A stretch of DNA of 64,000 bases. It comes from a virus. This document shows, piece after piece, positions 20,912-61,176 of this stretch. The notes under the pieces were generated by a model. The model was not told the DNA's origin and did no database searches. It saw only the letters and a program-made list of their open reading frames with translations. The DNA is taken from IMG/VR virus record IMGVR_UViG_3300024999_000072, positions 1-64,000 of that record; one strand, written 5' to 3'. Numbering within the stretch: the first letter of the stretch is position 1; the number at the start of each line of letters is the position of its first letter. Position numbers and translations under genes: made by a program.

Positions 20912-21916
20912 TTATTGAACCAAGTATTGCTTATGCGACTGTTTTCTTTTTTCGTCGGACAGGACAGAGTAAATTAGCGTTGTAGCCGGATCCACGTGCC
21001 CGAGTAATCCCTGGACCGCGACTAGATCCGCTCCGTTGTTTAACATGAGCGTCGCGAAAGTATGGCGAAATATATGCGGATGCACGTTTTTCTTGACCTC
21101 TGAGCGGCCGGCAATGATTTTGACCTCGCGTTGGATGCCCTTGGTCGATAGTCTCCTGTATGGTTTGCGCACGGTTACGAATAGCGCGTCCACAGTGTCG
21201 GAACGCTTCTTTAAGTATTTCTGCAAGTGGTACATGGCCTTGAATGAGAAGTAGACTGTTCGTTCTTTATTGCCCTTACCGACCACTTGAACTGACATTG
21301 CCTGATAGTCAATATCTTGGCGATTTAGTTGTTGTACTTCAGTGAGACGGGCGCCTGTCGCGTAATAGACTTCAATCATTGCGCGTTCGCGCGGGGTTAC
21401 GCAAGCCTCGCGGATCATCTCCAGTTCCTCGATAGTCAAGGCCTTCGGGGTTCTTTGCTCCTTTTTTGGTGGTTTGATCTGCTTGGTTACGTCGTTGGGA
21501 ATTATTTTCTCTGCTGCCAACCATCCGAACATTGATTTCAGAACAGACAATTTCTTGGATATTGACGAGGTTTTAAGGTAGTCAAATTCTCCGAGATAAA
21601 GACGGATATCAGATGTGGTTACTTCATCAGTGGCCTTCGAGACGTGTTCGGAGAATATCCGGAGTTCCAATGTGTAGCTATCTAGGGTTAAAGGGCTTAG
21701 ACCTTCGAGACGTTTCCCAGCCAAGAACAGCTTTATCTTAGCCGCTAGATCGGGATGGCCGTTAGGAATCAAGGCAGGTTTGATGTCGTACTGGGACAGG
21801 ATCATGATTATAGTCTGCTGGAGTTGAAGCTTGTCCACTTTTGGGCAAAGTGAGTTAATGGCGCACATTATCTGCTCCAGCAGGATCTCGGCGGTCGAGC
21901 TAAGTATTTGAGCCAT
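20912..21916 (-). CDS. Tyrosine recombinase, XerC/XerD-like
   Basis: A 334-residue site-specific recombinase. The N-terminal SAM-like DNA-binding domain spans about residues 55-145. The catalytic domain shows R190 (YYATGARLTEV), K214 (VVGKGNKER), H281 and R284 (HIFRHTF), H307 (LLGHVD) and Y316 (TTLIYS). The first 50 residues are an extra helical extension. It is more Xer-like than phage-integrase-like and is distinct from the integrase at 41233-42273. A role in dimer resolution of a plasmid-like prophage or in a second integration event is plausible. Confidence 0.88.
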   Translation of the reverse strand: MAQILSSTAEILLEQIMCAINSLCPKVDKLQLQQTIIMILSQYDIKPALIPNGHPDLAAKIKLFLAGKRLEGLSPLTLDSYTLELRIFSEHVSKATDEVTTSDIRLYLGEFDYLKTSSISKKLSVLKSMFGWLAAEKIIPNDVTKQIKPPKKEQRTPKALTIEELEMIREACVTPRERAMIEVYYATGARLTEVQQLNRQDIDYQAMSVQVVGKGNKERTVYFSFKAMYHLQKYLKKRSDTVDALFVTVRKPYRRLSTKGIQREVKIIAGRSEVKKNVHPHIFRHTFATLMLNNGADLVAVQGLLGHVDPATTLIYSVLSDEKRKQSHKQYLVQ

Positions 21917-23257: not shown

Positions 23258-23668
23258 ATGAACGCAAAAGAGTTAACTCTAAACACCTTTATCGCGGCAG
23301 TGGGAACAATTATAAGTGCATGTCTTGGAGGATGGGATGCCGCACTGAGGGTTTTAATTGGCCTCATGATCGTCGACTATGCAACTGGATTCTTGGGCGC
23401 AGTCAAGGATCACAAAGTAAACAGCGAGGTAATGTACTGGGGAGGACTTCGAAAGGCCGGAATCCTTGTTGTGTTAGGCATTGCCGTTCAACTTGATCAG
23501 ATGGTCGGCAACTCTGCACCGATTCTCCGGACGCTGGCAATTTACTTTTATGTGTCTAGGGAAGGCATTTCGGTGACGGAGAACTTGGGTATTCTCGGGG
23601 TGCCGCTACCGCCCGGTATTACCAAGGTGTTGACTCAATTACAAGAGAAAGGGGATGAAACGAAATGA
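23258..23668 (+). CDS. Phage holin, toxin-secretion/lysis type
   Basis: A 136-residue membrane protein with hydrophobic helices at about 10-28, 33-52, 66-82 and 88-105. The DYATGFLGAVKDHKVNS...GGLRKAGILVVLGIAVQLDQ pattern is that of Cph1/TcdE-type holins. It permeabilises the membrane so the amidase downstream (4-base overlap) reaches the wall. The ATG at 23258 has GGATGG upstream. Confidence 0.9.
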   Translation: MNAKELTLNTFIAAVGTIISACLGGWDAALRVLIGLMIVDYATGFLGAVKDHKVNSEVMYWGGLRKAGILVVLGIAVQLDQMVGNSAPILRTLAIYFYVSREGISVTENLGILGVPLPPGITKVLTQLQEKGDETK

Positions 23669-24480
23669 AAGCGGTAATTAATTACGGTCATGGGCGAAAA
23701 GACGTTGGGTATGATCCGGGAGCGGTCGGACCAACGGGATACCAAGAGGCTACCGAGAACCGTGAGGTTGGCGAGAAGGTAGTTGCAAAGCTGAAATCCA
23801 ACGGCTGGGATATACTCGCCATTCAAGATGGTGACCTAGACGATGTCACCGACCAATCGAACACTTACAAACCAAATGCCTTCCTCTCGATCCACGCCAA
23901 CTCCTTCGCTGATCCGGGTGCGCATGGGGTTGAAACCATAGCGCTCGGGCCTGGTGGGATGGGCGAGAAGATAGCCCGGGAGATCCAAAAGGAGTTAGTG
24001 GCAGCCACCGGACTCGCTGATCGAGGGGTGAAGTTTTCCAACCTGCACGTACTTAGGGAGACAAAGGGTTATCCTGCGGTTTTGGTGGAGATCGGCTTTA
24101 TTTCCAATCCGGAGGAAGAAGCGCTGATGAAGCAGGATACTTGGGATGAGATTGTAGCTTCGGCGTTATGCAGGGGGTTTAGCCGGGGTTCAGGAGTGCC
24201 TTATGTAGAGCGGATAGAGGGGGTAATAGGCGTGGGATTAGATGTAGCGGTTTTACTAAACACCAAGGAGGATTTCTGGGCGGGGGCTGACGTAGCTGCC
24301 AAGAATGGCAACTGTGCGGTGTTTGTGCGTGGTGAGGGTCGATCTGTTCCTGCCGAGGCTATGAGGGCCAAGCAGCTAATCATAGTTGGCGGGGCCACGA
24401 CCAAGCACCCGAACGAAGTGCTTCTCTCTGGGGAGACGAAGTTCGACACGGCTGAGGCGGTTGGGAAGTATTTGAGGTAG
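23665..24480 (+). CDS. Endolysin: N-acetylmuramoyl-L-alanine amidase with cell-wall-binding domain
   Basis: A 271-residue lysin. The Amidase_3 domain (residues 1-175) has zinc ligands H9 (NYGHG), Glu near 28-31 (ATENRE), H77 (SIHANSF) and catalytic E142 (VEIGFISNPEE). The C-terminal 85 residues (VGLDVAVLLNTKEDFWAGADVA ... VGGATTKHPN ... FDTAEAVGKYL) resemble type 2 cell-wall-binding repeats. No signal peptide, so export depends on the holin. Confidence 0.92.
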   Translation: MKAVINYGHGRKDVGYDPGAVGPTGYQEATENREVGEKVVAKLKSNGWDILAIQDGDLDDVTDQSNTYKPNAFLSIHANSFADPGAHGVETIALGPGGMGEKIAREIQKELVAATGLADRGVKFSNLHVLRETKGYPAVLVEIGFISNPEEEALMKQDTWDEIVASALCRGFSRGSGVPYVERIEGVIGVGLDVAVLLNTKEDFWAGADVAAKNGNCAVFVRGEGRSVPAEAMRAKQLIIVGGATTKHPNEVLLSGETKFDTAEAVGKYLR

Positions 24481-25376: not shown

Positions 25377-25384
25377 ACATGATA

Positions 25385-25417
25385 AAGCCCCGGGTCGTAA
25401 TGACTCGGGGCTTTTTT
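25385..25417. terminator. Bidirectional terminator between lysis genes and the minus-strand operon
   Basis: Stem AGCCCCGGGTC/GACTCGGGGCT with a GTAAT-like loop and six T on the plus strand, three on the minus. It separates the convergent lysis genes and the eleven-gene operon. Confidence 0.85.
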
Positions 25418-25425
25418 GCGTTTTA

Positions 25426-25587
25426 TCAGTTACTTTCCTTAAATAAATCAGGTTTGGCTTCAGCAAGTGCCTTAGCTCTCCTTAAGAACTCAATCTTAGT
25501 AATTCCGAGTTCCTTGCATACTTTTTCAAAGGATTCTTTTTCTTCCGGGAATACATCGAATCTAAGTACTACTTTGCCTTGTGCCAT
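25426..25587 (-). CDS. Small RHH-like protein
   Basis: A 53-residue protein, MAQGKVVLRFDVFPEEKESF... then EKVCKELGITKIEFLRRAKA, a strand-helix-helix pattern of ribbon-helix-helix or antitoxin-like proteins. Its ATG overlaps the previous stop by 1 base (TAATG), so it is translationally coupled. It is the last gene of the eleven-gene operon. Autoregulation is possible. Confidence 0.65.
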   Translation of the reverse strand: MAQGKVVLRFDVFPEEKESFEKVCKELGITKIEFLRRAKALAEAKPDLFKESN

Positions 25588-26087
25588 TATAGATTATTCT
25601 CCTTCATGAATATTATTTTTGCACGTTCGAAATCGGAATCAACCTTATCTTTAGCCATCGGAGCTGCCTTAACCAGCATATTGACCACGTCTTTCTGTAG
25701 ATACCATGTAATTGGCTTGCTATGCGAATATTCCAGATTATCCCCGAACAGGTGCAGGTTTATGGTTTCCTGAGACGCAAGAGAAGAAATACACTTAACA
25801 TGGTCCTCGCGAGTGAGATTAAAAAACACTTCCATCTTGCATGGATCTCCTGGATAGTCATGGATCGTGATCGGCATCCGGATGAGGGGGAATCCGTTGA
25901 TTGAGTGTAATTCGACGCTTATTTCGATCTTGGCCGTTTTCATTTCTCGGGATTTGATCTCCTTGGTGGATAGGCGGACCAGAAGGTCTGTTTGCCAGTT
26001 TACGCCGTCCGCAGATGCGAAAGTAGGGAGACAACCGTAGCCGATTTTTCGGAAGGCTTGGATTTCGATGTAATTTAGCTCAATCAT
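25587..26087 (-). CDS. Unknown protein of the IbrAB/methyltransferase operon
   Basis: A 166-residue protein of mixed alpha/beta pattern with no motif I recognise. The C-terminal third is helical and basic (KDVVNMLVKAAPMAKDKVDSDF). The ATG has AGGAGGTAA upstream. Being last but one in a tightly packed operon, it is likely an accessory of the system. Confidence 0.65.
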   Translation of the reverse strand: MIELNYIEIQAFRKIGYGCLPTFASADGVNWQTDLLVRLSTKEIKSREMKTAKIEISVELHSINGFPLIRMPITIHDYPGDPCKMEVFFNLTREDHVKCISSLASQETINLHLFGDNLEYSHSKPITWYLQKDVVNMLVKAAPMAKDKVDSDFERAKIIFMKENNL

Positions 26088-26094
26088 ATATATA

Positions 26095-26754
26095 TTACCT
26101 CCTAAAAACTCTATAACTCAAACCGTTCTTTGATATTTTTTCAAGCATTACGGATAGCCTTTTGTGATTCAACTCAGTTCCAACAAACTTCTTACCATTC
26201 TTTTGGGCGTTTATTCCAACTAATCCGCGCCCCATACAAAGGTCACCAATACAGATATAATCCTCATTCTTGCAAACCCACTCGATAATGTCCTCCTCGT
26301 CCATATAGTCAAGCGGGAGCTTTTTACGCTTTGCGCTGCCTCTAATAACGTAGCATAGATTTTCCTTTTTATGATAATAAGTGCTGTTATAAAATGTAAC
26401 GTGCTTATAAATAGTCTTCATTTCCTGTATAAACTCGCTTAAATACTCTTTCCCAACTTCAACATAACAGACTACCGGGTTTATTTCAGCGATGCACTCA
26501 AAGAGTCTTTTATAAAACGTTGTAAAGCTGTCTTGATAATCCTGTCGTTCCGCTTTTGTGTAGAATGTATTCAGGTTACCAAGGTTCCACGGTGGGTCTA
26601 CGAAAATTAAATCAGCAGGCCACATAATGCCCGGGAGGGGATCGAATATATTGTGAACCTTAACGGTGCTTCCGTCGTCGAAAATAGCGAATTGACCATC
26701 ACTAATGGGGTGACGAAGGTAAGCATCTCCATAGTTCCACTTAACCAACTTCAT
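26095..26754 (-). CDS. DNA methyltransferase, DPPW type (N6-adenine or N4-cytosine)
   Basis: A 219-residue SAM-dependent methyltransferase. The catalytic motif IV is DPPW at residues 53-56 (LIFVDPPWNLG). The SAM-binding motif lies near the C-terminus (GDLCMGRGLVG at 170-180, then KKFVGTELN), so the order is permuted (motif IV before motif I). There is no obvious separate target-recognition domain; DNA specificity may come from partner proteins. It overlaps the ParB gene by 14 bases. No restriction enzyme is next to it, so it may modify phage DNA. Confidence 0.85.
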   Translation of the reverse strand: MKLVKWNYGDAYLRHPISDGQFAIFDDGSTVKVHNIFDPLPGIMWPADLIFVDPPWNLGNLNTFYTKAERQDYQDSFTTFYKRLFECIAEINPVVCYVEVGKEYLSEFIQEMKTIYKHVTFYNSTYYHKKENLCYVIRGSAKRKKLPLDYMDEEDIIEWVCKNEDYICIGDLCMGRGLVGINAQKNGKKFVGTELNHKRLSVMLEKISKNGLSYRVFRR

Positions 26755-27325
26755 CCACCTCAGTCATTTCCCAAGACTTTGAGTAGATCTGTTTTTTGAA
26801 TAGCTCAGCAATGCCTGTAATCTGCTTGAGCCTGAATACTTCCTCGATTTCCATGCCTAGCTTTTGTGCTACCTCTTCGTCAGGAACACCTTGCTCAATT
26901 AAGGCCTGCACTAGATCACCCATGAGTTCCACCTGATGCACTCCCCGGGCTCGGTTAAATTGGACGGTGGCCTCCATGCGTTGTGCTGGGGTAAGGTCTA
27001 GGACAATGATTGGAATTTCTTCTGCATCTAACCATATTTCCAGAATGCTGTCTCTATGGAAACCGTCTATAATAACGAACTTTTCCAAATCATCATCCCA
27101 TGCTGTAACGATCCCGAAACAAACTCCATTACTCAAGATGGATGTTTCTAAAAGTTCCATGTTGTTTCTTGGCACGCTGTTTGGATTGTAGTTATTAGCC
27201 TGAACGAGATCTCTCGGCACGATGATAGGGCACATAACAGGGAATGATATATCGCCTTTCTTTGTTTTTATTTTCGGAAAGTCTGGTATTTCGTAGACTC
27301 CGTATTTAGTAGCTATTCTTCTCAC
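26741..27325 (-). CDS. ParB/Srx-fold nuclease-domain protein, IbrB-like
   Basis: A 194-residue ParB-domain protein. The fold shows NYNPNSVPRNNMELLETSIL, the loop FGIVTAWDDDLEKFVIIDG and the hallmark DGFHR at about 87-91, then a helical domain. GTG at 27325 is chosen because GGAGGG precedes it at 7 bases and it overlaps the upstream stop by 4 bases. It is directly coupled to a PAPS-reductase-family gene, the IbrB-IbrA arrangement known from enterobacterial prophages. ParB-fold proteins of this type can bind nucleotides; the activity here is unknown. Confidence 0.82.
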   Translation of the reverse strand: MRRIATKYGVYEIPDFPKIKTKKGDISFPVMCPIIVPRDLVQANNYNPNSVPRNNMELLETSILSNGVCFGIVTAWDDDLEKFVIIDGFHRDSILEIWLDAEEIPIIVLDLTPAQRMEATVQFNRARGVHQVELMGDLVQALIEQGVPDEEVAQKLGMEIEEVFRLKQITGIAELFKKQIYSKSWEMTEVDEVG

Positions 27326-28440
27326 AGTAATTCCCTCCATTTCTTAATAGTGGCCTCCCTGGGATCTGGCTTGTTATCGATAGGGAGATTGTTCTCGTAG
27401 TCGTTCAGAACTAACTGACGGCACTGCTGGCGAGCAACATGGGGATTCGTGAGGTGTTTTCCGAAACGCTTTACGAAGATATCTTTCTTGGTTTCGTCCG
27501 GGTAGGTTTCAAGCAGGAAGTCTCTGTATTCTATCCACGTCTTGTAATTCTTCGGCAGTTTTTGAACTCTTAGCATCTTAGAATCTTTGCCGTACAGATT
27601 GCCAATACTGATACCCTTAACCCTTTTGAGCAACCGATTATAAGTACTAGGTTCAAACTCCGGCAACTCAACCAGCGCCTTGAAGGACTTCTCGTGGATT
27701 AAACTAGATACGCGGATTTCCTGTATCCCCATGCCCTTTTTGTACATATAGTCATAGATTTTCGAATACTTCAATTTTGTATCATAGATATATTTCCATA
27801 TATCATGGAAATTCCAATCATAGAGAGGATAGAAGGCAACGCTTCCGCGTTTCATCTTAGTGCACCAGAAAGTATTTTGGTACCCGGGATTCTTAGCGAC
27901 AGCTCGCCACCGGTTGGGGCTTTCCGTGGCGCGTAGGCCAACGAGAAAGGCTGTATTTTCGCGGGAGTTCTGAAAGTTTTCTAACGCATCATAAAACCCA
28001 AATCCTTTGTTTTTATCCCTGACGGTTTCCGTTTCTATGGGCCATGGTTTGTGCTGAATGGAACCGGTTTTCTTACTACGCATCCACAATTTGTGTTTGC
28101 CAGCTTCCCAGCATATGAGTTGGCCTTCCGTTAGACTCGTGGCGTTGGTGAGCTTAAATTCGATCTGTAGCCATAGCGGGATAGTGTTCTCAGGATACAG
28201 TTTCATGAGGTACTCAATCTGCTTAATTGTGCTGTCGTATACCACCTCTTCATCCAGAAAGAATATGCCGATCTTTCTTCCGCGTTTATTAGCCTCCAAG
28301 AGCGCTAAATGAACCAAGACCGTGCTATCCTTGCCGCCACTTATCGATACAACAATGTTCTCGAACTCGTCAAAAATGTACGACATCCTCTCCTTTGCCG
28401 AGACCAGTACCGACTTATTTATATAAACTTGCTTGAGCAT
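27322..28440 (-). CDS. PAPS-reductase-family PP-loop protein, IbrA-like
   Basis: A 372-residue PP-loop ATP pyrophosphatase. The motif SGGKDS lies at 34-39; LVGLRATESPNRWRAVAKN and WCTKMKRGSVAFYPLYDWN are typical of IbrA/DUF3440-type proteins. It probably adenylates a substrate and may transfer sulfur or act on a nucleotide, but no reaction is established for phage members. It is coupled to the IbrB-like ParB gene and overlaps its upstream neighbour by 26 bases. A second, different PP-loop gene lies at 59853-61100. Confidence 0.85.
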   Translation of the reverse strand: MLKQVYINKSVLVSAKERMSYIFDEFENIVVSISGGKDSTVLVHLALLEANKRGRKIGIFFLDEEVVYDSTIKQIEYLMKLYPENTIPLWLQIEFKLTNATSLTEGQLICWEAGKHKLWMRSKKTGSIQHKPWPIETETVRDKNKGFGFYDALENFQNSRENTAFLVGLRATESPNRWRAVAKNPGYQNTFWCTKMKRGSVAFYPLYDWNFHDIWKYIYDTKLKYSKIYDYMYKKGMGIQEIRVSSLIHEKSFKALVELPEFEPSTYNRLLKRVKGISIGNLYGKDSKMLRVQKLPKNYKTWIEYRDFLLETYPDETKKDIFVKRFGKHLTNPHVARQQCRQLVLNDYENNLPIDNKPDPREATIKKWRELL

Positions 28441-29290
28441 AGATTGAATCCAACCTCGCTTTCCACGTTACAAACTCGTTAACAATCACGGTGTCGATAG
28501 GTAGGGTGGTGCTTAGATATTTGATCTTGGCCATGCCAGTCGTTTTAATAAAATCGTTAAAACTTAGTCGCCGATAGTGAGTGTCAATAACAATGTATTT
28601 TCCTTGTTTATCTATTTCGTCATAGGTTTTGACGTTATCTAGCTTGAATCGCTTGTTTCTTGCGACGTATAACTCCTCAGGGATAATTGCACATTTCTTA
28701 AGATCACCAGCGAATAGTTGCAGGGACCTCGGTATAGTATCTGGGTCCTTATTACCCAAATTATCGAAGAGTTGGTCCCGTTTTTTCGCGTATTGCTCCT
28801 TATTTTTGTCAGTGATCTCAACGTTGATTGTTTCGATCTTGACGCGGAAGGGCTTAATCTTAATATCCTCAGCTTGCAAAAATACATAATCAAAGGACTT
28901 CCCTTTGTATTTGCCTTTATTATCAAAGTCCAATAAGATCATGAAATCGTTCTTATCGGAGATGATCGGGAAGAACTCAAAGATAATCTTATGTGGAGTC
29001 TGGTTAAGATAGTGGTGAGCACAGTTGTAGATCAACTCACTTCGGTTCGCGGTCCGCATGCAGCCATCCATAATGATAAGGCATGTATTATCTATCTCTT
29101 CAAGAAGTCGGTAGAAGAACTTATACATTTCGATGTCTGCGTACTCGATGTACTCGATGTCGATTGGTACGCTGTACTTGACCGGAAACTTCTTGAAGTA
29201 GAAACAATAGACTTTTTTGATGTCGGTTGCTTGCAGATATGCGTCGATTTCCTTTTGTTTCTCACGGCTGTTTAGGCCTATTCTGATCAT
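28415..29290 (-). CDS. Unknown 291-residue protein between IbrA-like enzyme and helicase
   Basis: No known family was recognised. The first half looks like a Rossmann-like alpha/beta domain (KKVYCFYFKKFPV, CLIIMDGCMRTANRSELIYN, KIIFEFFPIISDKNDFMILLDFDN). The second half has charged helices and strands ending SLYK. It overlaps the helicase gene by 4 bases and the IbrA-like gene by 26 bases, so equal production and complex formation are likely. This is the core gene of the operon most worth structure prediction. Confidence 0.7.
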   Translation of the reverse strand: MIRIGLNSREKQKEIDAYLQATDIKKVYCFYFKKFPVKYSVPIDIEYIEYADIEMYKFFYRLLEEIDNTCLIIMDGCMRTANRSELIYNCAHHYLNQTPHKIIFEFFPIISDKNDFMILLDFDNKGKYKGKSFDYVFLQAEDIKIKPFRVKIETINVEITDKNKEQYAKKRDQLFDNLGNKDPDTIPRSLQLFAGDLKKCAIIPEELYVARNKRFKLDNVKTYDEIDKQGKYIVIDTHYRRLSFNDFIKTTGMAKIKYLSTTLPIDTVIVNEFVTWKARLDSIYAQASLYK

Positions 29291-30699
29291 AAACCCTTAA
29301 TCAACTCCCTAAGTTTGTTTTTATCACCTTGAGACTTCTCCACCTCCTGGCGAAACGATGCGGCGGCATTCTCCTTGTTAGACAACGCTTTATTGATCCT
29401 ATCGTCAATACTTCCGGAACAATAAATATCGATGTAAGTTACGTCATGCTCCTGGCCTATGCGGTGGTCCCGGTCCTCGGCCTGTAAACGTTCAGAGTAC
29501 TTAAACCCGTTGTTGTAAAATATGACAAAGTGCGACTCATTCAAGGTTAGGCCGTGGCCGCCACAGCTCGGGGTTGACACAAAGAACCGCGCTGGTCCTC
29601 GGAATAGTCCAACTTGTGCGGGACGGTCCTTTTCCTTGATCCCTCCATGGAATTGTGAAACAGAATCCTCGCCGTACTTATCAGACAGAGCTTTTACTAT
29701 CCCGCGTATATCATACATAAACTTGGCCCAGACAATGATCTTCTTGCCCTCAGGGATATCCGCAACCGCATCCATAAATGTCTCCATCCGGTAATGTCGG
29801 AACTCGAATAACTTCATTTTGCCCTTAACGCGGTAATTCCAGAATCCACATACGATCTCCTGCAGGGCCGTAAACATGCGGAAGATAGAAGTCGAGTTAA
29901 AATCTTCGCGGTCCAATTCGGCTAGGAATTTCTCTTTGGCTAAGTGGTATTCGTGAGCTTGTTTATCAGTCATATGGAAATATCGTGTTTCGTAGAGTTT
30001 TTTAGGGAGATCAAGACATTCCTCTTTTGTAATTTGGTAGACATACGGCTTAGTTTTAGCGGCTAGGTATGCGGTGTTGTGGCTCCTCACAATCCGACCC
30101 GGGAACTTCTCGGAATACTCAAGGTGGTTGGCAGCAAAACTGTAGAAGGAGTTATACCCGAGGATCTTGGGCGAGAGAAAACGCATCTGTGCGTAAAGGT
30201 CTACAACACCTTGGGAGAGGGGAGTGCCGGTTAGAATTAGGCGATACCTTGAGCGCGCGCTCATGGCCGTGATCCGTGTCGTGCGCTTTGAGTCGTGGCC
30301 CTTAATATAGCTCGATTCGTCCAAGATAACGAACGTTTTAGCCGTGATTAGCTTATTCGCAGCCAAGACCATGCGTGTACTACTACTCATCGACTCGATG
30401 CCGATAATATACCACAACGCCTTCGGTATTGATCGCTCCCGCGTCTTGCTCCCAAAAACGTAGATATCGGCATCGGTGCAGTCGGTGTGCTTGAGTATCT
30501 CTTGCCGCACGGTTTCTTTGAGTGATACTGGACAAAAGTAAACAACCTTGTCTATCTTATGTTGGCGACGGTAAACAATTTCGAAGGTTGTTCTCGTTTT
30601 CCCTGTCCCCATGTCCATGAAGAGTCCGCCTATGGTAGTGGGAACCATTTTTTCTACAGCCGGTACTTGGTGGGGGAGAAGGTTAGTCTTTAAATTCAT
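29287..30699 (-). CDS. SNF2-type DEAD/DEAH-box helicase or translocase
   Basis: A 470-residue superfamily 2 ATPase. Motif I MGTGKT at 30-35, motif II DESS at 127-130 in place of DEAH, motif III LTGTP at 156-160, and motif VI QAEDRDHRIGQ near 415, the last typical of SNF2/phage translocases. It has only the two RecA-like lobes and a short tail, so it probably works with neighbouring proteins. It may remodel DNA for the methyltransferase or PP-loop enzyme. Confidence 0.9.
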   Translation of the reverse strand: MNLKTNLLPHQVPAVEKMVPTTIGGLFMDMGTGKTRTTFEIVYRRQHKIDKVVYFCPVSLKETVRQEILKHTDCTDADIYVFGSKTRERSIPKALWYIIGIESMSSSTRMVLAANKLITAKTFVILDESSYIKGHDSKRTTRITAMSARSRYRLILTGTPLSQGVVDLYAQMRFLSPKILGYNSFYSFAANHLEYSEKFPGRIVRSHNTAYLAAKTKPYVYQITKEECLDLPKKLYETRYFHMTDKQAHEYHLAKEKFLAELDREDFNSTSIFRMFTALQEIVCGFWNYRVKGKMKLFEFRHYRMETFMDAVADIPEGKKIIVWAKFMYDIRGIVKALSDKYGEDSVSQFHGGIKEKDRPAQVGLFRGPARFFVSTPSCGGHGLTLNESHFVIFYNNGFKYSERLQAEDRDHRIGQEHDVTYIDIYCSGSIDDRINKALSNKENAAASFRQEVEKSQGDKNKLRELIKGL

Positions 30700-31843
30700 C
30701 CAACACCTCCGTATCGTCAGGTATTTCTAGCACTGGAGCCCTGCTTGTTACAACGGCATAATCCTTTTCTTTCGGCTCCATGGCGATGCCGATAATCGAG
30801 TTATTACGCACCTCCTCTGCTCTTGTGATAACATCCCTAGCTCCGCTCGAAATCTCAAACTTATACATCTCCGCAAAGTCTAGCACCTCCGCGAAGTGCT
30901 CAGGCGAAACGACTACATTCGGCTTATCGTATTTTGCACCAGTGATGGATTTAGCTCGTCGATACAGATTTTCGTCTCGCGACCACGAAATAACGAACCA
31001 TCCGAAGTATTTACCCTCTACTACACGAGATATCCACCGTGTACATTCTGGTTTGTAGTCGGCGTTAATTGCTCTCTCGCGGATCTCAGCGTCGAAGATC
31101 CGGATGGAGAACCCTGCGTATAGGAGTTTGTTTCCGGCTTCAGCAGCGCGGTCCTCAATGGTGCCATTCTTCATCCTTATTCTTCGTTTCCATGATCCTT
31201 CGGACCATACCATGTTTAGTTCTTTTTTCACAAGTTCGCGGAAACTATCTCGTTTCTCGGGGAATCTTATTTCTAGCAGATCGTCAAGGATGCGTATTTC
31301 TGCGACAGTCTCAGTTTTCGGATTCTCCGGCCGGACGGTGGCTTCCGCAAGAATATCCTTGACAACTTCCTTAGGCGGCATAATCTCTTCATGCTTGATC
31401 GTTTCTAATTCTGCGTTTAAAAGCTTCATGACCCCTAGTGAGTCCCTAACTAAAAACCGTCGATCTATCCACCAGTGGGCTCTTGTTTTTCCCGCCTTGA
31501 TGTGTTCGATCGCATCCCGCATATTGGCTTGGGTATCAATGTGCCCTAATCGCTTATCTGCCGCAACCGAATCCATGTATGAAAGCAGTTCTATCCTGAT
31601 TGATTCGGCCCACGGAATCTGCTTCTCTGTGCCGGTTAGTGCAGGGAGATTGTTATCCTTCGCGGCTTCGGCAGCTTCTCGGTTCGCCTCTTTGCGACGG
31701 CGTTGCAGATCGACTTGGTAGCATTCGGAGCAGAGCTTGTCGGCTTCGATGTGTTCTAATTTCCATTCGCAGTCCTTAGTTTTCCCGATCAGGGCCACGG
31801 TTTCCTCGTGGCCGCAGGAGCGGGTGACGGTGTAGTTAGCCAC
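30683..31843 (-). CDS. Zinc-finger-containing protein, unknown function
   Basis: A 386-residue protein. The N-terminus carries a putative zinc finger (RSCGH...KDCEW...LCSECY, residues 7-46). A helical basic middle and an alpha/beta C-terminal half (NVVVSPEHFAEVLDFAEMYKFEISS) follow. GTG at 31843 is chosen since GGATGTGGGG lies just upstream; an in-frame TTG at 31864 is an alternative. It overlaps the helicase by 17 bases. Possibly a DNA-binding partner of the helicase. Confidence 0.7.
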   Translation of the reverse strand: MANYTVTRSCGHEETVALIGKTKDCEWKLEHIEADKLCSECYQVDLQRRRKEANREAAEAAKDNNLPALTGTEKQIPWAESIRIELLSYMDSVAADKRLGHIDTQANMRDAIEHIKAGKTRAHWWIDRRFLVRDSLGVMKLLNAELETIKHEEIMPPKEVVKDILAEATVRPENPKTETVAEIRILDDLLEIRFPEKRDSFRELVKKELNMVWSEGSWKRRIRMKNGTIEDRAAEAGNKLLYAGFSIRIFDAEIRERAINADYKPECTRWISRVVEGKYFGWFVISWSRDENLYRRAKSITGAKYDKPNVVVSPEHFAEVLDFAEMYKFEISSGARDVITRAEEVRNNSIIGIAMEPKEKDYAVVTSRAPVLEIPDDTEVLDEFKD

Positions 31844-32399
31844 TGCCCCACATCCAAGCCACAAACTTGTCAGCGTCCCATCCTAGCTCATCGCACGCGT
31901 CGAAGATGGAATCCATCCAGTCGGGATGATATTCATTACCTTCGCCAACGATCTTGTCAACTGACTTGAGATACTGAGCAAATGCTTCGCGTCCTTCTTT
32001 GCCTAACTCTACGAGCTCAGGGATCGACTTGAATTTTAGTATTTCGGACATCCAAAACTTTTTACGATAGATCTCTTCCATATCGCTTGGCTTTGCATAT
32101 ACCTCGACGTGATCATAATTTCCCTCGTTCACGATCTGGTTAAAAAATACGTCAACTTGCAACATCTGATCGCTAATCGTCATGTGAGGCGCAGGTGTAA
32201 CCTTAAAGCTAGAACCATGATCAGGCGCTACTCGCTTACTTGCCCACACTTGACTAATCTCATTATCCTTAATACGGATCTCAATAGAGAATTCACCGAA
32301 AGGATATTCTCCGGTTACGACAACTGCGTAACGACCGTGGCCGAACTTAAAGTTTTTTACTGCTTCAAACGCTTCGCTGGTTAGTTCTATTAGGTTCAT
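31836..32399 (-). CDS. Unknown protein of the minus-strand operon
   Basis: A 187-residue acidic protein with an N-terminal beta-rich half (KFGHGRYAVVVTGEYPFGEF) and a helical C-terminal half. ATG at 32399 has AAGGAGGATG upstream; the frame extends further back, but that region forms three hairpins. No family recognised. Confidence 0.68.
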   Translation of the reverse strand: MNLIELTSEAFEAVKNFKFGHGRYAVVVTGEYPFGEFSIEIRIKDNEISQVWASKRVAPDHGSSFKVTPAPHMTISDQMLQVDVFFNQIVNEGNYDHVEVYAKPSDMEEIYRKKFWMSEILKFKSIPELVELGKEGREAFAQYLKSVDKIVGEGNEYHPDWMDSIFDACDELGWDADKFVAWMWGSG

Positions 32400-32492
32400 G
32401 GCTTCATCCTCCTTATTTCTGGGCCTATAACCCTTGAGCGCCGCACCCTTTCGGGTGGTCCTGGCTTGCACAGGACTGGGCCTAGCGGGCTA
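32400..32492 (-). promoter_or_regulatory. Structured leader RNA candidate upstream of the 31836-32399 gene
   Basis: On the minus strand three consecutive hairpins are visible: CCTAG-CCCG-CTAGG, GTCCTG-TGCAAGC-CAGGAC, and CACCC-GAAA-GGGTG (a GNRA-type loop), followed by AAGGAGGATG and the ATG. AGGCCCAG occurs twice in the leader. Confidence 0.5.
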
Positions 32493-32711
32493 GGAAATTT
32501 CAGGATACAATGTCTCGTTAATCATCTCCTGAAGCTTCTTCGCTTCAGGAATCATCCATTTCGGCGAATTTTTAGCCTGTTCTGAATCAGGCTCACATAT
32601 CGAATAGTGCTCCCCATCCCAATTCCGAATATAGACAGTAGGTGATCCCATAGATGTCCTGACCACTATTTCTGGCCCTAGCTCCCATTTACCGATTTCA
32701 ATTTTTTCCAT
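32490..32711 (-). CDS. Small protein, unknown function
   Basis: A 73-residue protein (MEKIEIGKWELGPEIVVRT...) with a beta-rich N-terminus and a helical C-terminus. The ATG follows a hairpin leader and AAAGGGCG. Second gene of the operon driven from 33000-33028. Confidence 0.6.
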   Translation of the reverse strand: MEKIEIGKWELGPEIVVRTSMGSPTVYIRNWDGEHYSICEPDSEQAKNSPKWMIPEAKKLQEMINETLYPEIS

Positions 32712-32726
32712 TTCGTAACGCCCTTT

Positions 32727-32748
32727 CGCCGGATTGGCCCGGCTGGCC
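32727..32748 (-). promoter_or_regulatory. GC-rich hairpin leader element, copy 2
   Basis: Minus-strand GCCGG-GCCAAT-CCGGC hairpin followed by GAAAGGG, immediately before the 32490-32711 gene. It matches the element at 22245-22270 (GCCAGCCGGG, CCAAT, CCGGCG, AAAGG shared). Confidence 0.5.
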
Positions 32749-32754
32749 TAATTC

Positions 32755-32964
32755 CTAAACTCCAAACATCGACCATTCTTCCTCGATTGCTACTGGCTGT
32801 AATCCACTCAGTACCTTTTCTCTAAGTATGCTTAATTTACTTTTCTCCATCAGCATGCTGTCAAATTTTTCGCGTCCCATTAATGCAACCTCATTGTTGA
32901 TTGTATCAAGTTTATCATTCAGTAGGTCCAGGACTGTTTTTAGATCATTTTTATTTAGTTCCAT
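32755..32964 (-). CDS. Small coiled-coil protein, first gene of the minus-strand operon
   Basis: A 69-residue protein with a heptad-like helix (LKTVLDLLNDKLDTINNEVA ... KSKLSILREKVLSGL). GAGGGAATG provides the ribosome binding site. It lies 36 bases after a near-consensus promoter. Function unknown; a small regulator or phage host-interaction protein is possible. Confidence 0.65.
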   Translation of the reverse strand: MELNKNDLKTVLDLLNDKLDTINNEVALMGREKFDSMLMEKSKLSILREKVLSGLQPVAIEEEWSMFGV

Positions 32965-32999: not shown

Positions 33000-33028
33000 A
33001 TTATACAGCACGTTACGTTATGCGTCAA
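33000..33028 (-). promoter_or_regulatory. Near-consensus promoter of the eleven-gene operon
   Basis: On the minus strand TTGACG (33028-33023), 17 bases, TATAAT (33005-33000). The spacer contains GTTACGTTA-like sequence related to the GTTACGTAAC palindrome in the 23-kb divergent promoter, so both may share a repressor. A TTCGTAA/TTACGAA inverted repeat lies just upstream (33047-33064). Confidence 0.85.
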
Positions 33029-37213: not shown

Positions 37214-37923
37214 TGCGATTCCCCCTTTTTCGCGTTGTGTACGTTGAAACAAAACTTCTTGACTTCATCTAGGGTTAGGACTTCGACGAGGTACGAATAG
37301 GCCCGATCATTCTTAACGATTTTCTGAATGATGTCAGTTGGTCCATCTGTCACAATGAGGATGGTAAAATTCTGCTCCTTATTCAAGTCAATCCACCAAT
37401 GAGGACGGGCCCCTTGGGATTTCTCCTGAATAAGTTTTTTTGCCAGATCATTGTATTGCTTAATCTTCTTGAACTCATTACCGGATTCGTGCCGATTAAA
37501 TTCACAAAAGAAAGGTTTTAGTTCGGGAGTTTTGAACGTGATAAATTGATCCGGTTGGACGATGGGGAGAAATTCCTTTGGTTCGTTCTGGAAGGTTAGA
37601 TGGAACTTGCTCTCCCTGGCCCTAATGGTCATAAAGGTATAGATCCAACTCTTCCCAATGGTGTGCTCGACGTTTCTTGGGGCCTTCTCGTCAACTAACC
37701 AAAAGTAATCCTTCTCGGAAAACGATATACGATTTCCGCGCTTAATACGTTTTTTCTTAACTAGCCTCCTAGTGCAACGATGGACCATTTCCACAGATAA
37801 TCCAGCGAACTCAAGCAAATGGATTTGATCCGTGTTCAAGCAGTTGCAGCGCTCTAGGTGAGCTAGAACCCGTAAATCTCGGGAGTAGCCCTTTACGTGA
37901 CTTGCTTGACTTGTGTTGCTCAT
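37141..37923 (-). CDS. Replication-relaxation family protein
   Basis: A 260-residue protein with an N-terminal winged helix (SRDLRVLAHLERCNCLNTDQ) and the following alpha/beta domain (PHWWIDLNKEQNFTILIVTDG) of the replication-relaxation family (PF13814) found on plasmids and integrative elements. The C-terminus is Gln/Ser rich. ATG at 37923 has GGCGAGGTG upstream. It overlaps the FtsK-like gene by 113 bases and the SpoIIIAC-like gene by 73 bases. Likely DNA-binding; a relaxase role is not proven. Confidence 0.75.
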   Translation of the reverse strand: MSNTSQASHVKGYSRDLRVLAHLERCNCLNTDQIHLLEFAGLSVEMVHRCTRRLVKKKRIKRGNRISFSEKDYFWLVDEKAPRNVEHTIGKSWIYTFMTIRARESKFHLTFQNEPKEFLPIVQPDQFITFKTPELKPFFCEFNRHESGNEFKKIKQYNDLAKKLIQEKSQGARPHWWIDLNKEQNFTILIVTDGPTDIIQKIVKNDRAYSYLVEVLTLDEVKKFCFNVHNAKKGESQCSQESQRQPQSSQYSGLRLVSKL

Positions 37924-39175
37924 AGTCATGCACCTCGCCTTGAATATCTTCGTATGGCATAGCGAACTGGGGGAGTCTGGAAAGGAGTTCGTGGTAACGG
38001 TCGGGATCGGAAACAACAGAAGGGAAATACATAGACTGAACCTCTATCTCTTCATCCCAGTCGAATATTGCTCGGCCCTTAGCCTTCTTTGGTATGAAGG
38101 CTGCTTTGCTATTGCCTAAAATCATGTTGGAGTTCACGGTATCCTTAACCCGGTAAACGAGATTAGCGTCAAACATAGCTTTCAACTCAGGGAATGAACC
38201 GATCTTACCGAGCGCACCGGAACTAGGGCGTTGGATTGCTCCGACAGTAAATATTCCCTGAGATCTGCCAACATGGAGAAGCCGATGATAGGAGTTATAG
38301 GCATCCTTTGTTAACTCTCCCATCTCATCGCAACACAGAACGATTGCCGGCATCTTGTGCCCGATCTGAAGGAACTCCGGAAAGTTTCTTGCGCCGGTTG
38401 AATTAACAATCGGAGCCCTACGGTCGTTCTCGTCGTTAACCCACTGCAGGAGTTTTTCGATGTGATGGGGTTTTTTTGCCCACAAAAGTCCATGCTTTTC
38501 GAGATACTGAAACTCACCTAGTTTAGGATCCAGCATAACGGGTATTACACGAGGCTGTTGGTCAATGCGGTTCATACTCAGAAGGGTATAGAGGATTACG
38601 TGTTCGATGTTTGACTTCCCGCTGCCCATCATGCCAACGATGAGGAGTGTGAGCATTTCGGCAAGATCCTTGACGACAAGTCCGTTAATGGAGTAGCCCA
38701 CAGGGAAGGGGAGTAGCATACCTTTCTTGATATAGGGGGAGGGGTCGAACTCGTAGGGATAGGACTTCTTGCGGTCCACGTTACTAACTGTCATATGCAC
38801 CGCCATTCCGTGGGCTTCGATCTGACAGGTGCCATCCTCACCTAAAGCATCAGCAAAGGTCTGCTCTAAGGACTTGAACTTCTCGAAGTTGTGTCCAGGC
38901 GGGAGGTTGATCACAAAGAACCATGTTTCGTCAGAGTGGTCATCCATGGACTTGATTCGGCTTATGATCTCCTTCAGGCTCTTAGGGGCCTCCGATTTAG
39001 ATTTAGGCTCCTTGGGTTCGTCGAGTCTCTTCTCGATGATGAGGGGACGGTAATCCTCTCCGTAGACGTGGACTATGACATCGTAGATCTTGGCGGGGAT
39101 ACCGCCGCCTCGTTCTCTGCCGCGCCGCCACTGCCTCATGGCGTGGTCGTAAAGATCATGTCGTTCTGTTGTCAC
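37811..39175 (-). CDS. FtsK/SpoIIIE/TraB-like DNA translocase
   Basis: A 454-residue P-loop pump. Walker A GMMGSGKS at 181-188, Walker B IVLCCDEMGEL at 278-288, and RSQGIFTVGAIQRPSS at 304-319, a typical FtsK/TraB sensor region. It lacks the multi-pass N-terminus of FtsK; the first 160 residues are a soluble domain. GTG at 39175 has GGGAGGAA upstream. In streptomycete plasmids similar pumps move double-stranded DNA between cells. Here it lies with a replication-relaxation protein, wall peptidase and small membrane proteins. Confidence 0.88.
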   Translation of the reverse strand: MTTERHDLYDHAMRQWRRGRERGGGIPAKIYDVIVHVYGEDYRPLIIEKRLDEPKEPKSKSEAPKSLKEIISRIKSMDDHSDETWFFVINLPPGHNFEKFKSLEQTFADALGEDGTCQIEAHGMAVHMTVSNVDRKKSYPYEFDPSPYIKKGMLLPFPVGYSINGLVVKDLAEMLTLLIVGMMGSGKSNIEHVILYTLLSMNRIDQQPRVIPVMLDPKLGEFQYLEKHGLLWAKKPHHIEKLLQWVNDENDRRAPIVNSTGARNFPEFLQIGHKMPAIVLCCDEMGELTKDAYNSYHRLLHVGRSQGIFTVGAIQRPSSGALGKIGSFPELKAMFDANLVYRVKDTVNSNMILGNSKAAFIPKKAKGRAIFDWDEEIEVQSMYFPSVVSDPDRYHELLSRLPQFAMPYEDIQGEVHDYEQHKSSKSRKGLLPRFTGSSSPRALQLLEHGSNPFA

Positions 39176-41232: not shown

Positions 41233-42273
41233 TTAAATCAAATCTACTGCTTTTTTTAATTCCTCAATATCTTTATGGGTGTAAACCTTGTCGGTGATAT
41301 CATTACTGGCGTGTCCCATAATTCTTTTAATACTCACCTTATTCGCGCCGGCATTATCCATTAGAGTGGCGAAGGTGTGCCTACAATCATGCGGACGATG
41401 ATCTGGCATTTCCAATTGCTCCATAATAATCTTCCATTTCTCTTCGTAGTAATTCCAATACTTCATTTGTTTGTTTTCGTGATTTACGATTAAAAACTCG
41501 TGCCCCTTATCCTTCCTCTCAGCTATATATGGGAGGATTTTTTTATTAATAGGTATGATTCGATTTTTCCCTGCTGCTGTTTTGAGGCCGCCTTTCATGG
41601 TCCTATTCTCAATGTCGATATCTGCTGTTTTTATCAAAAGTAATTCGCCAACACGTAGACCGGTATAAATCATAATCAAAGTGGTGTCTATAAAATCCAT
41701 CCTATCAACGTTATTAGTTAATAACGCAATCTCATCTTGTGTAAATGGCCTCCGGGTGCTTTCTGATTCGTTCTCTCCTATCTCGACAAATTTCGAATAG
41801 TCCTTATCTACAATATCATTTTCAAGTGCGTACTTGAAAAGCTGATTAAATAAAACTTTGATCTTTTTTAAAGTCCCGTGACCTTTCTCGCATTGGTCAA
41901 TTACGCTTTGCATGTGTGGTTTTTTGATCTCGGTGAATTTCGTATCATATAGGTCTGTAGAGTGATTATAGGCGGCATTATATCCATTTATGGTTGATTT
42001 TGAGTTTGTTTTCTTGAATTTTTCCTCCGACCATTTTCCGTAAAGCTCAGAGAAGGTAATTGCTTGATCTATAGAATATGGATTTTTATGGTATTCAGCT
42101 AAAGCAAGAAGGGCTTCTTGGCGCGTTTTAAAGTATCCGATAGGCTTGTAAAGCTGTTTAAGCTTACCTTTATCTTCGTCAAGTTCCCACCCTGTAGTGA
42201 CCCTTGCGCGGAATGGTCGTCTTCGTTTTCCTGATAACTTACTAATATTTCCGAAGCCATTGGGGTTTCTCAC
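41233..42273 (-). CDS. Phage tyrosine integrase
   Basis: A 346-residue integrase. Residues 1-60 are an AP2-like arm-binding domain, about 70-165 the core-binding domain, and the rest the catalytic domain, with R207 (YTGLRVGEL), K231, H295 and R298 (HDCRHTF), H321 (IMGHAS) and Y331 (DKVYTHK). It lies next to the CI-like repressor and excisionase-like genes, so it is the main integrase of the phage. Confidence 0.93.
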   Translation of the reverse strand: MRNPNGFGNISKLSGKRRRPFRARVTTGWELDEDKGKLKQLYKPIGYFKTRQEALLALAEYHKNPYSIDQAITFSELYGKWSEEKFKKTNSKSTINGYNAAYNHSTDLYDTKFTEIKKPHMQSVIDQCEKGHGTLKKIKVLFNQLFKYALENDIVDKDYSKFVEIGENESESTRRPFTQDEIALLTNNVDRMDFIDTTLIMIYTGLRVGELLLIKTADIDIENRTMKGGLKTAAGKNRIIPINKKILPYIAERKDKGHEFLIVNHENKQMKYWNYYEEKWKIIMEQLEMPDHRPHDCRHTFATLMDNAGANKVSIKRIMGHASNDITDKVYTHKDIEELKKAVDLI

Positions 42274-58623: not shown

Positions 58624-58877
58624 ACTCAATCGAGGTAAAACTCAACTACTGCGCCGTGGCCGTGGCGATCCTCGCAAAATGCAACATCGAAACAGCTTTT
58701 GAAAAATTACAGCACCCTCATCCGGATAAAGTTAGAACGCATCTTACCACAGAGGATGTTGAAGATATACAAAGGTTTCGTGACGAAGGACTTTCCTACA
58801 ACGCGATAGCTAAGATTTATGACGTTTCTCGGTCTTCGATTATCTGGAGATTAGCCAGAGATGGCAAGGAGGACTAA
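58611..58877 (+). CDS. Small HTH protein
   Basis: An 88-residue protein whose C-terminus (IQRFRDEGLSYNAIAKIYDV then SRSSIIWRLA) is a resolvase-type helix-turn-helix. Overlaps the helicase end by 13 bases and the next start by 1 base. Confidence 0.68.
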   Translation: MVGVDSIEVKLNYCAVAVAILAKCNIETAFEKLQHPHPDKVRTHLTTEDVEDIQRFRDEGLSYNAIAKIYDVSRSSIIWRLARDGKED

Positions 58878-59860
58878 TGATGGGTGAAACAAAAATTGAG
58901 TGGTGCAGTCATACGTGGAATCCAATTTCTGGATGTACCAAAATATCTACCGGCTGTAAAAATTGTTTTGCAGAACGCATGAGTAAGCGCCTAGCCGGGC
59001 GTTGTGGGTACCCAAAAGATGATCCGTTCAAGGTGACATTGCATCCCGATAAACTTGAACAACCCTTACGATGGGCAAAGCCACGAAAGATATTCGTGAA
59101 CAGCATGAGCGATCTATTCCATGATGATGTGGATGAAAAGTTCATTGCTAAAGTGTTTGCTATCATGGATTTGGCTCGTCAGCATACCTATATGATTCTG
59201 ACAAAAAGACCGGAACGAGCAGCGAAATTGCTAAACGACGAAGATTTCCAGTTTCATATAGACTGGTTTCAGTCACAAGCAATACGAGAGTTTGGGCTAC
59301 CAGAGCCAAAAGAGATAGGACCATTCCCTTTTAAAAATGTTTGGATTGGCGTCTCTGTGGAGAATCAAGCTACAGCAGACGAGCGAATCCCGTTGCTATT
59401 ACAGATGCCGGCGGTAGTGAGGTTTATCAGTGCGGAACCACTTCTCGGAAAGTTGGATCTTTCTCGATGGCTAGGGATTTCTCGGTTTGAAGAAGGGGCG
59501 CAGTGGGTCAGAGATACAGGAGCAGATCTGGACTTGGTTATTACAGGTGGGGAGAGCGGCCCGGGCGCGCGTCCAATGCATCCGGATTGGGCACGAAGTT
59601 TGAGAGATCAATGCCAGGCGGCGGATGTACCTTATTTTTTTAAACAGTTCGGAGAATGGGCTCAGGTCGGAGAATGCGGCAATAGTTCTGACGATGCCGT
59701 GTTTTACCACAACAATAACTATCAACGTGTCAACCATAATGGGGGCATGGGATATCACGGATCCGGAGCGATTTACATGCAAAGAGTCGGCAAAGAGCAA
59801 GCTGGGCGCTTACTCGATGGTCGAACTTGGGATGAAACCCCAACGAGCAAGAATGAGTAA
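58877..59860 (+). CDS. DUF5131 (phage Gp37/Gp68) family protein
   Basis: A 327-residue protein. WCSHTWNPISGC then TKISTGCKNCFAERM places Cys at 20, 27 and 30, a radical-SAM-like CX6CX2C cluster; KIFVNSMSDLFHD, MILTKRPERAA, GVSVENQ and ITGGESGPGARPM are DUF5131 hallmarks. The reaction is unknown. It is directly coupled to the PP-loop gene, a pairing that suggests nucleic-acid modification. Confidence 0.88.
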   Translation: MMGETKIEWCSHTWNPISGCTKISTGCKNCFAERMSKRLAGRCGYPKDDPFKVTLHPDKLEQPLRWAKPRKIFVNSMSDLFHDDVDEKFIAKVFAIMDLARQHTYMILTKRPERAAKLLNDEDFQFHIDWFQSQAIREFGLPEPKEIGPFPFKNVWIGVSVENQATADERIPLLLQMPAVVRFISAEPLLGKLDLSRWLGISRFEEGAQWVRDTGADLDLVITGGESGPGARPMHPDWARSLRDQCQAADVPYFFKQFGEWAQVGECGNSSDDAVFYHNNNYQRVNHNGGMGYHGSGAIYMQRVGKEQAGRLLDGRTWDETPTSKNE

Positions 59861-61100: not shown

Positions 61101-61176
61101 GGGGTAGATCAGGTAGGGAGGCTGATCTGAGACAGATGGTAATATTTTGATTCAAGGAAGGGAAGGAGGTTAAGTC

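What the first reader, a model, noticed from the sequence alone, without database searches (positions are those of the whole stretch)
25426..32964. Eleven-gene IbrAB-like operon with methyltransferase, SNF2 helicase and unknown core genes
Directly seen: eleven minus-strand genes behind one near-consensus promoter (33000-33028) and a terminator (25385-25417), several overlapping by 1-29 bases. The order is three small proteins, zinc-finger protein, SNF2-type helicase, unknown 291-residue protein, PAPS-reductase-family PP-loop protein, ParB-domain protein, DPPW methyltransferase, unknown protein, RHH protein. ParB plus PP-loop is the IbrB-IbrA pair known from enterobacterial prophages; the helicase, methyltransferase and unknowns added to it suggest a DNA-modification, anti-restriction or defence system expressed from the lysogen.
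Basis: partly seen in the sequence, partly recalled or inferred. Interest (0 to 1): 0.87.

Follow-up and report, generated by a model that had tools for sequence, protein, structure and literature searches.

The report
Phage IbrAB cassette with swappable partner
A tightly conserved six-gene phage cassette, probably a DNA-modifying machine, pairs a fixed core (a dead SNF2-like protein, IbrA, a ParB-like protein and a methyltransferase) with either a zinc-finger/SNF2 motor, as here, or, in related phages, a type IV-B CRISPR complex whose job is unknown.

Summary
The operon is real: eleven minus-strand ORFs behind one near-consensus promoter. Only six genes travel together, in order: zinc-finger, SNF2, 291-aa protein, IbrA, ParB, methyltransferase. 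In 37 non-redundant phage, prophage or metagenome loci found through the 291-aa gene, IbrA and ParB follow in 34/34 with enough sequence and the methyltransferase is detected in 33/34; flanks differ.

The 291-aa 'unknown' gives a confident AlphaFold2 model (pLDDT 94) whose nearest folds are SWI2/SNF2 ATPases, but it lacks Walker A: a probable pseudo-SNF2.

Unexpectedly, 6/37 cassettes lack the zinc-finger/SNF2 pair and carry type IV-B CRISPR genes (csf1, csf2, csf3, cysH) in the same operon. 30 have SNF2, 6 type IV-B, 1 neither, 0 both (Fisher p=3e-6), with repeated swaps on the IbrA tree. A reverse search from csf2 found further type IV-B/IbrA-ParB operons lacking the pseudo-SNF2. I found no paper describing this link.

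IbrA keeps its PP-loop but has no invariant cysteine, which argues against PAPS reduction and Dnd-type phosphorothioation. Best reading: an ATP-dependent DNA-modification complex with interchangeable targeting modules (confidence 0.45; function untested). Lysogen-specific expression is not shown. The window's own 82.6-kb record carries no csf genes.

The parts
33000..33028 (-). sigma-70-type promoter of the operon, TTGACG-17-TATAAT
   Evidence: 11 of 12 consensus positions, read directly
32755..32964 (-). g1, 69 aa, unknown; not part of the conserved core
32490..32711 (-). g2, 73 aa, unknown; not part of the conserved core
31836..32471 (-). g3, 211 aa, unknown; only its C-terminal 60-75 aa recur in some relatives (L004, L021)
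30683..31864 (-). g4, zinc-finger protein (C10, C38, C41 conserved at 96%, numbering from V8), 393 aa from a TTG start; core gene, present in 23 of 25 SNF2-type cassettes with enough upstream sequence
   Evidence: PHROG 16123 6e-21
29287..30699 (-). g5, SNF2-type ATPase, 470 aa, with G31xGK34, D127E128S129, G158TP and Q406xxxRxxRxGQ invariant in 29 relatives: intact motor
   Evidence: PF00176 1.9e-22
28415..29290 (-). g6, 291 aa, pseudo-SNF2: SNF2-like fold, no GK[ST] in any of 36 homologues; hallmark gene of the cassette
   Evidence: AF2 pLDDT 93.9; Foldseek PDB top hit 1z63 E 3.4e-6; BFVD; hhalign to SNF2 E 1.3e-5, prob 81
27322..28440 (-). g7, IbrA: PP-loop/PAPS-reductase-type domain plus partial DUF3440, 372 aa; SGGKDS invariant apart from G35 (94%), no invariant cysteine
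26741..27340 (-). g8, ParB-like (IbrB-type) protein, 199 aa; PN, DGFHR, NxARGxH motifs
   Evidence: PHROG 2159 1.1e-45
26095..26754 (-). g9, beta-class-like amino-methyltransferase, 219 aa; DPPW (D53, P55, W56 invariant) ahead of the motif-I-like GDxCMGxGLV
   Evidence: PF01555 28.7 bits, cut-off 26.7
25587..26087 (-). g10, 166 aa, unknown; not part of the conserved core
25426..25587 (-). g11, 53 aa, possible ribbon-helix-helix; not part of the conserved core
   Evidence: NikA-like E 0.009, below cut-off
25384..25414 (.). 14-bp-stem hairpin between convergent genes; strong T-run only on the + strand

Best explanation
A phage-borne, ATP-dependent DNA-modification ('marking') complex. SHOWN: a fixed core of g6 (SNF2-like fold, no Walker A), IbrA (PP-loop), a ParB-like protein and a beta-class-like amino-methyltransferase, joined in one operon to one of two mutually exclusive modules: zinc-finger + active SNF2 (this window) or a type IV-B Csf set + CysH (relatives). 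INFERRED: the ParB-like protein is an NTP-gated DNA clamp; IbrA activates an oxygen in DNA by adenylation and exchanges it; the methyltransferase modifies an exocyclic amine at the same or neighbouring sites; g6 is a non-hydrolysing DNA- or partner-binding scaffold; and the SNF2/zinc-finger pair, or a Csf RNP, delivers or opens the DNA for the enzymes. The likely benefit is protection of phage DNA from host or rival nucleases.
For: Strict linkage of g6, IbrA, ParB and methyltransferase (34/34, 34/34, 33/34) with overlapping or near-abutting reading frames. The predicted activities are DNA-directed: SNF2 motor motifs intact, methyltransferase with DPPW and motif-I-like glycines, zinc-finger ligands conserved. 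IbrA keeps the ATP-pyrophosphatase motif but has no invariant cysteine, which fits substrate adenylation better than sulfonucleotide reduction; the same has been argued for CasCysH (PMC8175902). A working precedent for the architecture is Dpd, where a ParB-like ATPase (DpdB) drives insertion of a modified base made by DpdA (PMC12839542); g5 matches DpdE, the Dpd SNF2 protein, at 9e-25. A ParB-like gene also precedes a queuine tRNA-ribosyltransferase in Fusobacterium phage phiFN37, 3 kb from its own IbrA-ParB-helicase set. Inactive SNF2 domains acting as DNA-binding or sensing parts are described in PglZ and DndH (PMC12839542).
Against: No modified base has been measured and no substrate is known. 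IbrA/IbrB of E. coli were named as co-activators of prophage genes (Sandt 2002, cited in PMC10434257). IbrA matches DndC only at 22 bits against a cut-off of 290. Co-linearity shows functional linkage, not chemistry; the order of action of the parts is inference.
Confidence: 0.45

Rival explanations
1. A competition or superinfection-exclusion system: the Csf RNP or the SNF2/zinc-finger module recognises rival DNA, and the core silences, marks or damages it.
For: Type IV systems sit on mobile elements and IV-A suppresses rivals (PMC11656645; PMC12669027). The SNF2 protein is related to those of Zorya, Dpd and DISARM. The cassette sits in a temperate phage here, and IbrA-ParB-methyltransferase also occurs on a Fusobacterium plasmid.
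Against: No nuclease domain was recognised in g4-g9, and no CRISPR-like direct repeats lie beside the csf-bearing cassettes examined.
Confidence: 0.22
2. A transcription regulator: IbrA/IbrB act as co-activators of phage or host genes, with SNF2 or Csf RNP as chromatin- or transcript-directed helpers.
For: IbrAB of E. coli ECOR-9 activate prophage eib genes (Sandt 2002, cited in PMC10434257). In enterobacterial plasmids the pair occurs without any of the other genes. RapA-type SNF2 proteins act on RNA polymerase and appear among g6's fold neighbours.
Against: Two predicted catalytic enzymes (PP-loop, methyltransferase) with conserved motifs are hard to explain by regulation alone, and the original phenotype could be indirect through DNA marks.
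Confidence: 0.15
3. Sulfur metabolism: IbrA is a PAPS reductase serving as an auxiliary metabolic gene.
For: Pfam and PHROG names; annotated so in many phages.
Against: No invariant cysteine; best score to the cysH model 33.6 bits against a cut-off of 165; constant pairing with ParB and DNA-acting proteins.
Confidence: 0.03
4. The type IV-B link is a hot-spot accident: unrelated cargo genes land at the same site.
For: Cargo genes do cluster in phages, and most type IV-B loci found by csf2 have no IbrA in the sequence held.
Against: Several different gene orders keep csf, cysH and the core interleaved on one strand with overlapping or abutting frames (cysH>g6 -4, csf3>g6 +2, MTase>cysH -4, MTase>csf1 +1, ParB>cysH -11). 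SNF2 and csf exclude each other (p=3e-6), and a second IbrA lineage without g6 shows the same link. Both g6 and this csf2 are rare: 2 and 3 of 391 genomes of one bacterial class.
Confidence: 0.08

Closest known systems
IbrA/IbrB pair (PAPS-reductase/DUF3440 protein plus ParB-like protein) of enterobacterial and other phages and plasmids
   Same: Adjacent PP-loop/DUF3440 and ParB-like genes; 27-37% identity to IbrA of other phages and plasmids
   Different: Enterobacterial plasmids carry the bare pair; here it sits in a fixed operon with pseudo-SNF2, methyltransferase and SNF2/zinc-finger or type IV-B genes
SNF2-IbrA-ParB triads of Streptococcus, Lactobacillus, Fusobacterium and Flavobacterium phages
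   Same: Active SNF2 of the same subfamily (blastp 1e-29 to 4e-33 to g5) beside IbrA and ParB
   Different: No g6 and no g9-type methyltransferase detected there; single SNF2 instead of an active plus a dead one
Type IV-B CRISPR-Cas with CasCysH
   Same: Found in one operon with the same core in six non-redundant relatives; CasCysH shares IbrA's SGGKDS and RxxES-type motifs and is weakly similar to it
   Different: Window lacks csf1, csf2 and csf3; known IV-B loci are described without IbrA or ParB
Dpd (7-deazaguanine) DNA-modification systems
   Same: Logic of base-modifying enzyme + ParB-like NTPase + SNF2
   Different: No transglycosylase (DpdA) in the cassette; g8 did not match any PADLOC model
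Dnd/Ssp/BREX-4 phosphorothioation
   Same: A PP-loop/PAPS-reductase-type enzyme in a DNA-directed gene set
   Different: No DndA/D/E, PglZ or BrxL; IbrA scores far below the DndC cut-off and lacks an invariant cysteine

Membership tests
IbrA/IbrB-type pair | PAPS-reductase domain followed by DUF3440 | tested here: met
   PF01507 63.4 bits, PF11922 45.3 bits, both above cut-off, though DUF3440 is matched only over 88 of 182 positions
IbrA/IbrB-type pair | Adjacent ParB-like gene | tested here: met
   g8 overlaps g7 by 19 bases; PHROG 2159; 34 of 34 relatives
IbrA/IbrB-type pair | Activation of prophage genes | not testable with these tools
   Genetic phenotype only
PAPS reductase (CysH) | Catalytic cysteine | tested here: not met
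   No invariant Cys among 49 IbrA representatives (C340 86%, C110 67%); cysH model 33.6 bits, cut-off 165.1
Dnd phosphorothioation | DndC equivalog and DndDE partners | tested here: not met
   DndC 22.2 bits, cut-off 290.4; no other Dnd component among g4-g9
Type IV-B CRISPR-Cas | csf1, csf2, csf3 | tested here: not met
   None in the 82.6-kb record; met in relatives L025, L042/L043, L047/L049, L050, L062
Dpd | DpdA transglycosylase | tested here: not met
   No such match among g4-g9
Zorya / DISARM | ZorD / DrmD equivalogs | tested here: not met
   ZorD 47.7 bits, cut-off 1500; DrmD 32.6 bits, cut-off 950
SWI2/SNF2 ATPases (for g6) | SNF2-like two-lobe fold | tested here: met
   Foldseek PDB: 40 matches at E<=1e-3, the top ones SNF2 family; BFVD; hhalign E 1.3e-5 over lobe 1 only
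SWI2/SNF2 ATPases (for g6) | Walker A | tested here: not met
   No GK[ST] or GR[ST] in the first 40 residues of any of 36 homologues
Restriction-modification | Cognate restriction endonuclease | tested here: inconclusive
   None recognised in g4-g9; g1-g3 and g10 have no usable match, so an unknown nuclease cannot be excluded

The most novel reading that the evidence does not exclude
RNA-guided DNA modification: in the type IV-B form the Csf RNP with CasCysH replaces the zinc-finger/SNF2 pair as the targeting module of an IbrA-ParB-methyltransferase modification enzyme, which would give type IV-B CRISPR its long-missing function; the window shows the protein-guided form of the same machine.
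Probability: 0.2. Interest if true: 0.95.

Novelty: new variant of a known kind. Interest (0 to 1): 0.78.

Why it matters
The function of type IV-B CRISPR-Cas and of its CysH-like protein is described as unknown (PMC8175902, PMC11656645), and IbrA/IbrB is known only as a co-activator. Repeated exchange of SNF2/zinc-finger for Csf/CysH in front of one fixed core suggests that both do the same kind of job for it. That turns two open questions into one testable system, some members of which lie in sequenced isolates (Caldicoprobacter algeriensis for the type IV-B form; Pelotomaculum, Anaerobacterium and Clostridium luticellarii for the SNF2 form).

Tried and rejected
g6 by sequence alone: no Pfam, PHROG, NCBIfam or PADLOC match, no phage-collection match and no PDB sequence match. 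A first AF2 model from eight close homologues was poor (pLDDT 64); the 36-sequence alignment solved it. I first thought g6 might be a shortened relative of the Streptococcus-phage helicases next to IbrA; blastp and hmmsearch gave nothing significant, and only fold comparison with the hhalign test showed the link. Phosphorothioation was considered and set aside (no invariant Cys, DndC score). CRISPR-like direct repeats beside the csf-bearing cassettes: none; the only family found is a 12-nt tandem repeat in L050. csf or a second g6 elsewhere in the window's record: none. Type IV-B csf2 hits in two other genomes of the class showed no IbrA in the stretches held, so the link is recurrent, not universal. 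Literature searches for IbrA/ParB with type IV CRISPR gave no report; one glacial phage-plasmid scaffold is listed with IbrA/B and a CRISPR/Cas system, type not given (PMC4490671).
Full report
Setting. The window is the first 64 kb of an 82.6-kb IMG/VR virus record. It has a terminase, two integrases, a repressor and an antirepressor, so it is a temperate tailed phage. The finding lies on the minus strand between the amidase-like ORF at 23665-24480 and the integrase/repressor region.

Observation. The eleven ORFs, their overlaps and the promoter are as described. The terminator hairpin is real but its T-run favours the opposite strand. A terminator-like hairpin at 33094-33072 separates the operon from the gene upstream.

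What is conserved. The 291-aa g6 was used as bait. Relatives at 32-100% identity were found in IMG/VR and in genomes labelled Pelotomaculum, Clostridium, Anaerobacterium, Peptostreptococcus, Caldicoprobacter, a Synergistaceae MAG and a Bacteroidales MAG. All window proteins were then searched in these loci and with profile HMMs. After dereplication at 90% g6 identity, 37 loci remain. Of those with enough downstream sequence, IbrA is present in 34/34, ParB in 34/34 and the methyltransferase in 33/34; the exception, L093 (the same contig as L062), has a more divergent methyltransferase-like match just upstream of g6. The g6 presence is by construction; that of the others is not. Genes g1, g2, g10 and g11 are not conserved, and of g3 only a C-terminal part recurs. 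Flanking phage genes differ between loci.

What g6 is. With 36 homologues AlphaFold2 gives pLDDT 93.9 and pTM 0.89. Foldseek against PDB returns SWI2/SNF2 ATPase cores first (1z63, 3.4e-6; INO80, CSB, SNF2h), and against BFVD phage 'chromatin remodeling complex ATPases' plus one short 297-aa relative. The TM-scores to PDB entries are moderate (0.34-0.63 on the query), partly because the two lobes may be differently arranged; this last point is my inference. Profile comparison with the g5-type SNF2 alignment gives probability 81, E 1.3e-5, over lobe 1 including motif II. No homologue has a GK[ST] Walker A. I therefore read g6 as a pseudo-SNF2. Inactive SNF2 domains in PglZ and DndH are a described precedent (PMC12839542).

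The rest of the core. g5 keeps all SNF2 motor motifs. IbrA keeps SGGKDS and the RxxES...YP.YDW...D.W motifs but no invariant cysteine over 49 representatives. ParB keeps the PN, DGFHR and NxARGxH motifs. The methyltransferase has DPPW before a motif-I-like GDxCMGxGLV, the beta-class order (class assignment from general knowledge). g4 keeps its zinc-ligand cysteines.

The swap. In L025 (a Caldicoprobacter algeriensis isolate), L042-L044, L047/L049, L050/L051 and L062 the SNF2 and zinc-finger genes are missing, and csf1, csf2, csf3 and a CysH-like gene are present, with a cas11 confirmed in L025 and seen by homology in L042-L044. PADLOC matches reach 3e-93 for Cas7, 6e-60 for Cas5 and 5e-37 for Cas11. 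The NCBIfam csf scores are below their strict cut-offs, so these are divergent members. At least four gene orders occur: csf-cysH-core; csf-core-cysH; core-csf-cysH-csf3; csf-g6-IbrA-ParB-cysH. Junctions between csf/cysH and the core are -23 to +2 bases where the neighbours are directly joined (start codons there were chosen as nearest to the preceding stop, so these distances are lower bounds on tightness claims and not measured starts). Among the 37 loci, 30 have SNF2, 6 have csf, none both, 1 neither (Fisher p = 3.0e-6; this test ignores relatedness). On the IbrA tree the type IV-B-associated members with g6 need at least four changes of state on well-supported branches, so the exchange happened more than once.

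Reverse test. Searching IMG/VR with csf2 gave 30 loci, most of them type IV-B-type. Besides the known g6 cassettes, L066/L089, L078 and L083 carry IbrA and ParB of another lineage (31-34% identical IbrA; no g6) beside csf/cysH, and on a Rhodovastum plasmid a DUF3440 protein and a ParB protein lie about 2-4 kb from csf/cysH on the opposite strand. Most other type IV-B loci show no IbrA in the sequence held, so the link is recurrent but not universal; several of those loci are short contigs. Background: IbrA relatives occur in 215 of 50,697 phage records; in 391 genomes of one class, g6 occurs in 2 and this Cas7 in 3. No CRISPR-like direct repeats lie beside the eight csf-bearing loci examined.

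Wider frame. Streptococcus, Lactobacillus, Fusobacterium and Flavobacterium phages carry an active SNF2 of the g5 subfamily next to IbrA and ParB. Enterobacterial plasmids carry the bare pair. So IbrA-ParB is the minimal unit, often accompanied by an SNF2 motor or a type IV-B complex.

Interpretation. The fixed core looks like a DNA-acting enzyme set and the exchanged part like its targeting or DNA-opening module. The closest working analogy is Dpd, in which a ParB-like ATPase drives base insertion (PMC12839542). I prefer DNA modification (0.45) to competition (0.22) and transcription control (0.15). None of this has been measured. Membership of any known modification or defence system fails on tested features, except that the pair belongs to the IbrA/IbrB type.

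Limits. Most relatives are metagenomic contigs, though the type IV-B form is also in an isolate genome. Literature access was limited to open-licence papers; Pinilla-Redondo 2020 on type IV diversity was not held, so prior notice of the link cannot be excluded.

Noticed in passing
window 58877-61986, + strand: A second PP-loop/PAPS-reductase-family protein (59625-61100, PF01507 5.5e-21) overlaps a DUF5131 gene (58877-59860) and precedes a D12-class N6-adenine methyltransferase (61177-61986), beside a replication-initiation gene; it matches the CysH profile of type IV-B loci at 2.8e-17.
   Followed up: partly
window 20912-21916 and 41233-42273, - strand: Two tyrosine-type integrase genes about 20 kb apart in one phage record, with an FtsK/SpoIIIE-like gene at 37811-39175.
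   Followed up: no
L082 12163-12837: A distant g9-type methyltransferase lies between csf3 and cysH in a type IV-B locus that has no IbrA nearby.
   Followed up: no
L057 7384-8004; L062 7501-7968: Here the methyltransferase-like gene has moved directly upstream of g6; L057 has neither SNF2 nor csf nearby.
   Followed up: no
L098 (Fusobacterium varium plasmid pFV113-g1-2) 752-3037: IbrA (72% identical)-ParB-methyltransferase next to a resolvase on a mobilizable plasmid, without g6 in the stretches read.
   Followed up: partly
L038 (Fusobacterium phage phiFN37) 10745-12030: A second ParB-like gene directly precedes a queuine tRNA-ribosyltransferase gene, 3 kb from an IbrA-ParB-helicase set.
   Followed up: no
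L050 3808-3900: A 12-nt tandem repeat (ATCAGGTAAGTA), about six copies, about 4 kb upstream of a csf-bearing cassette.
   Followed up: no
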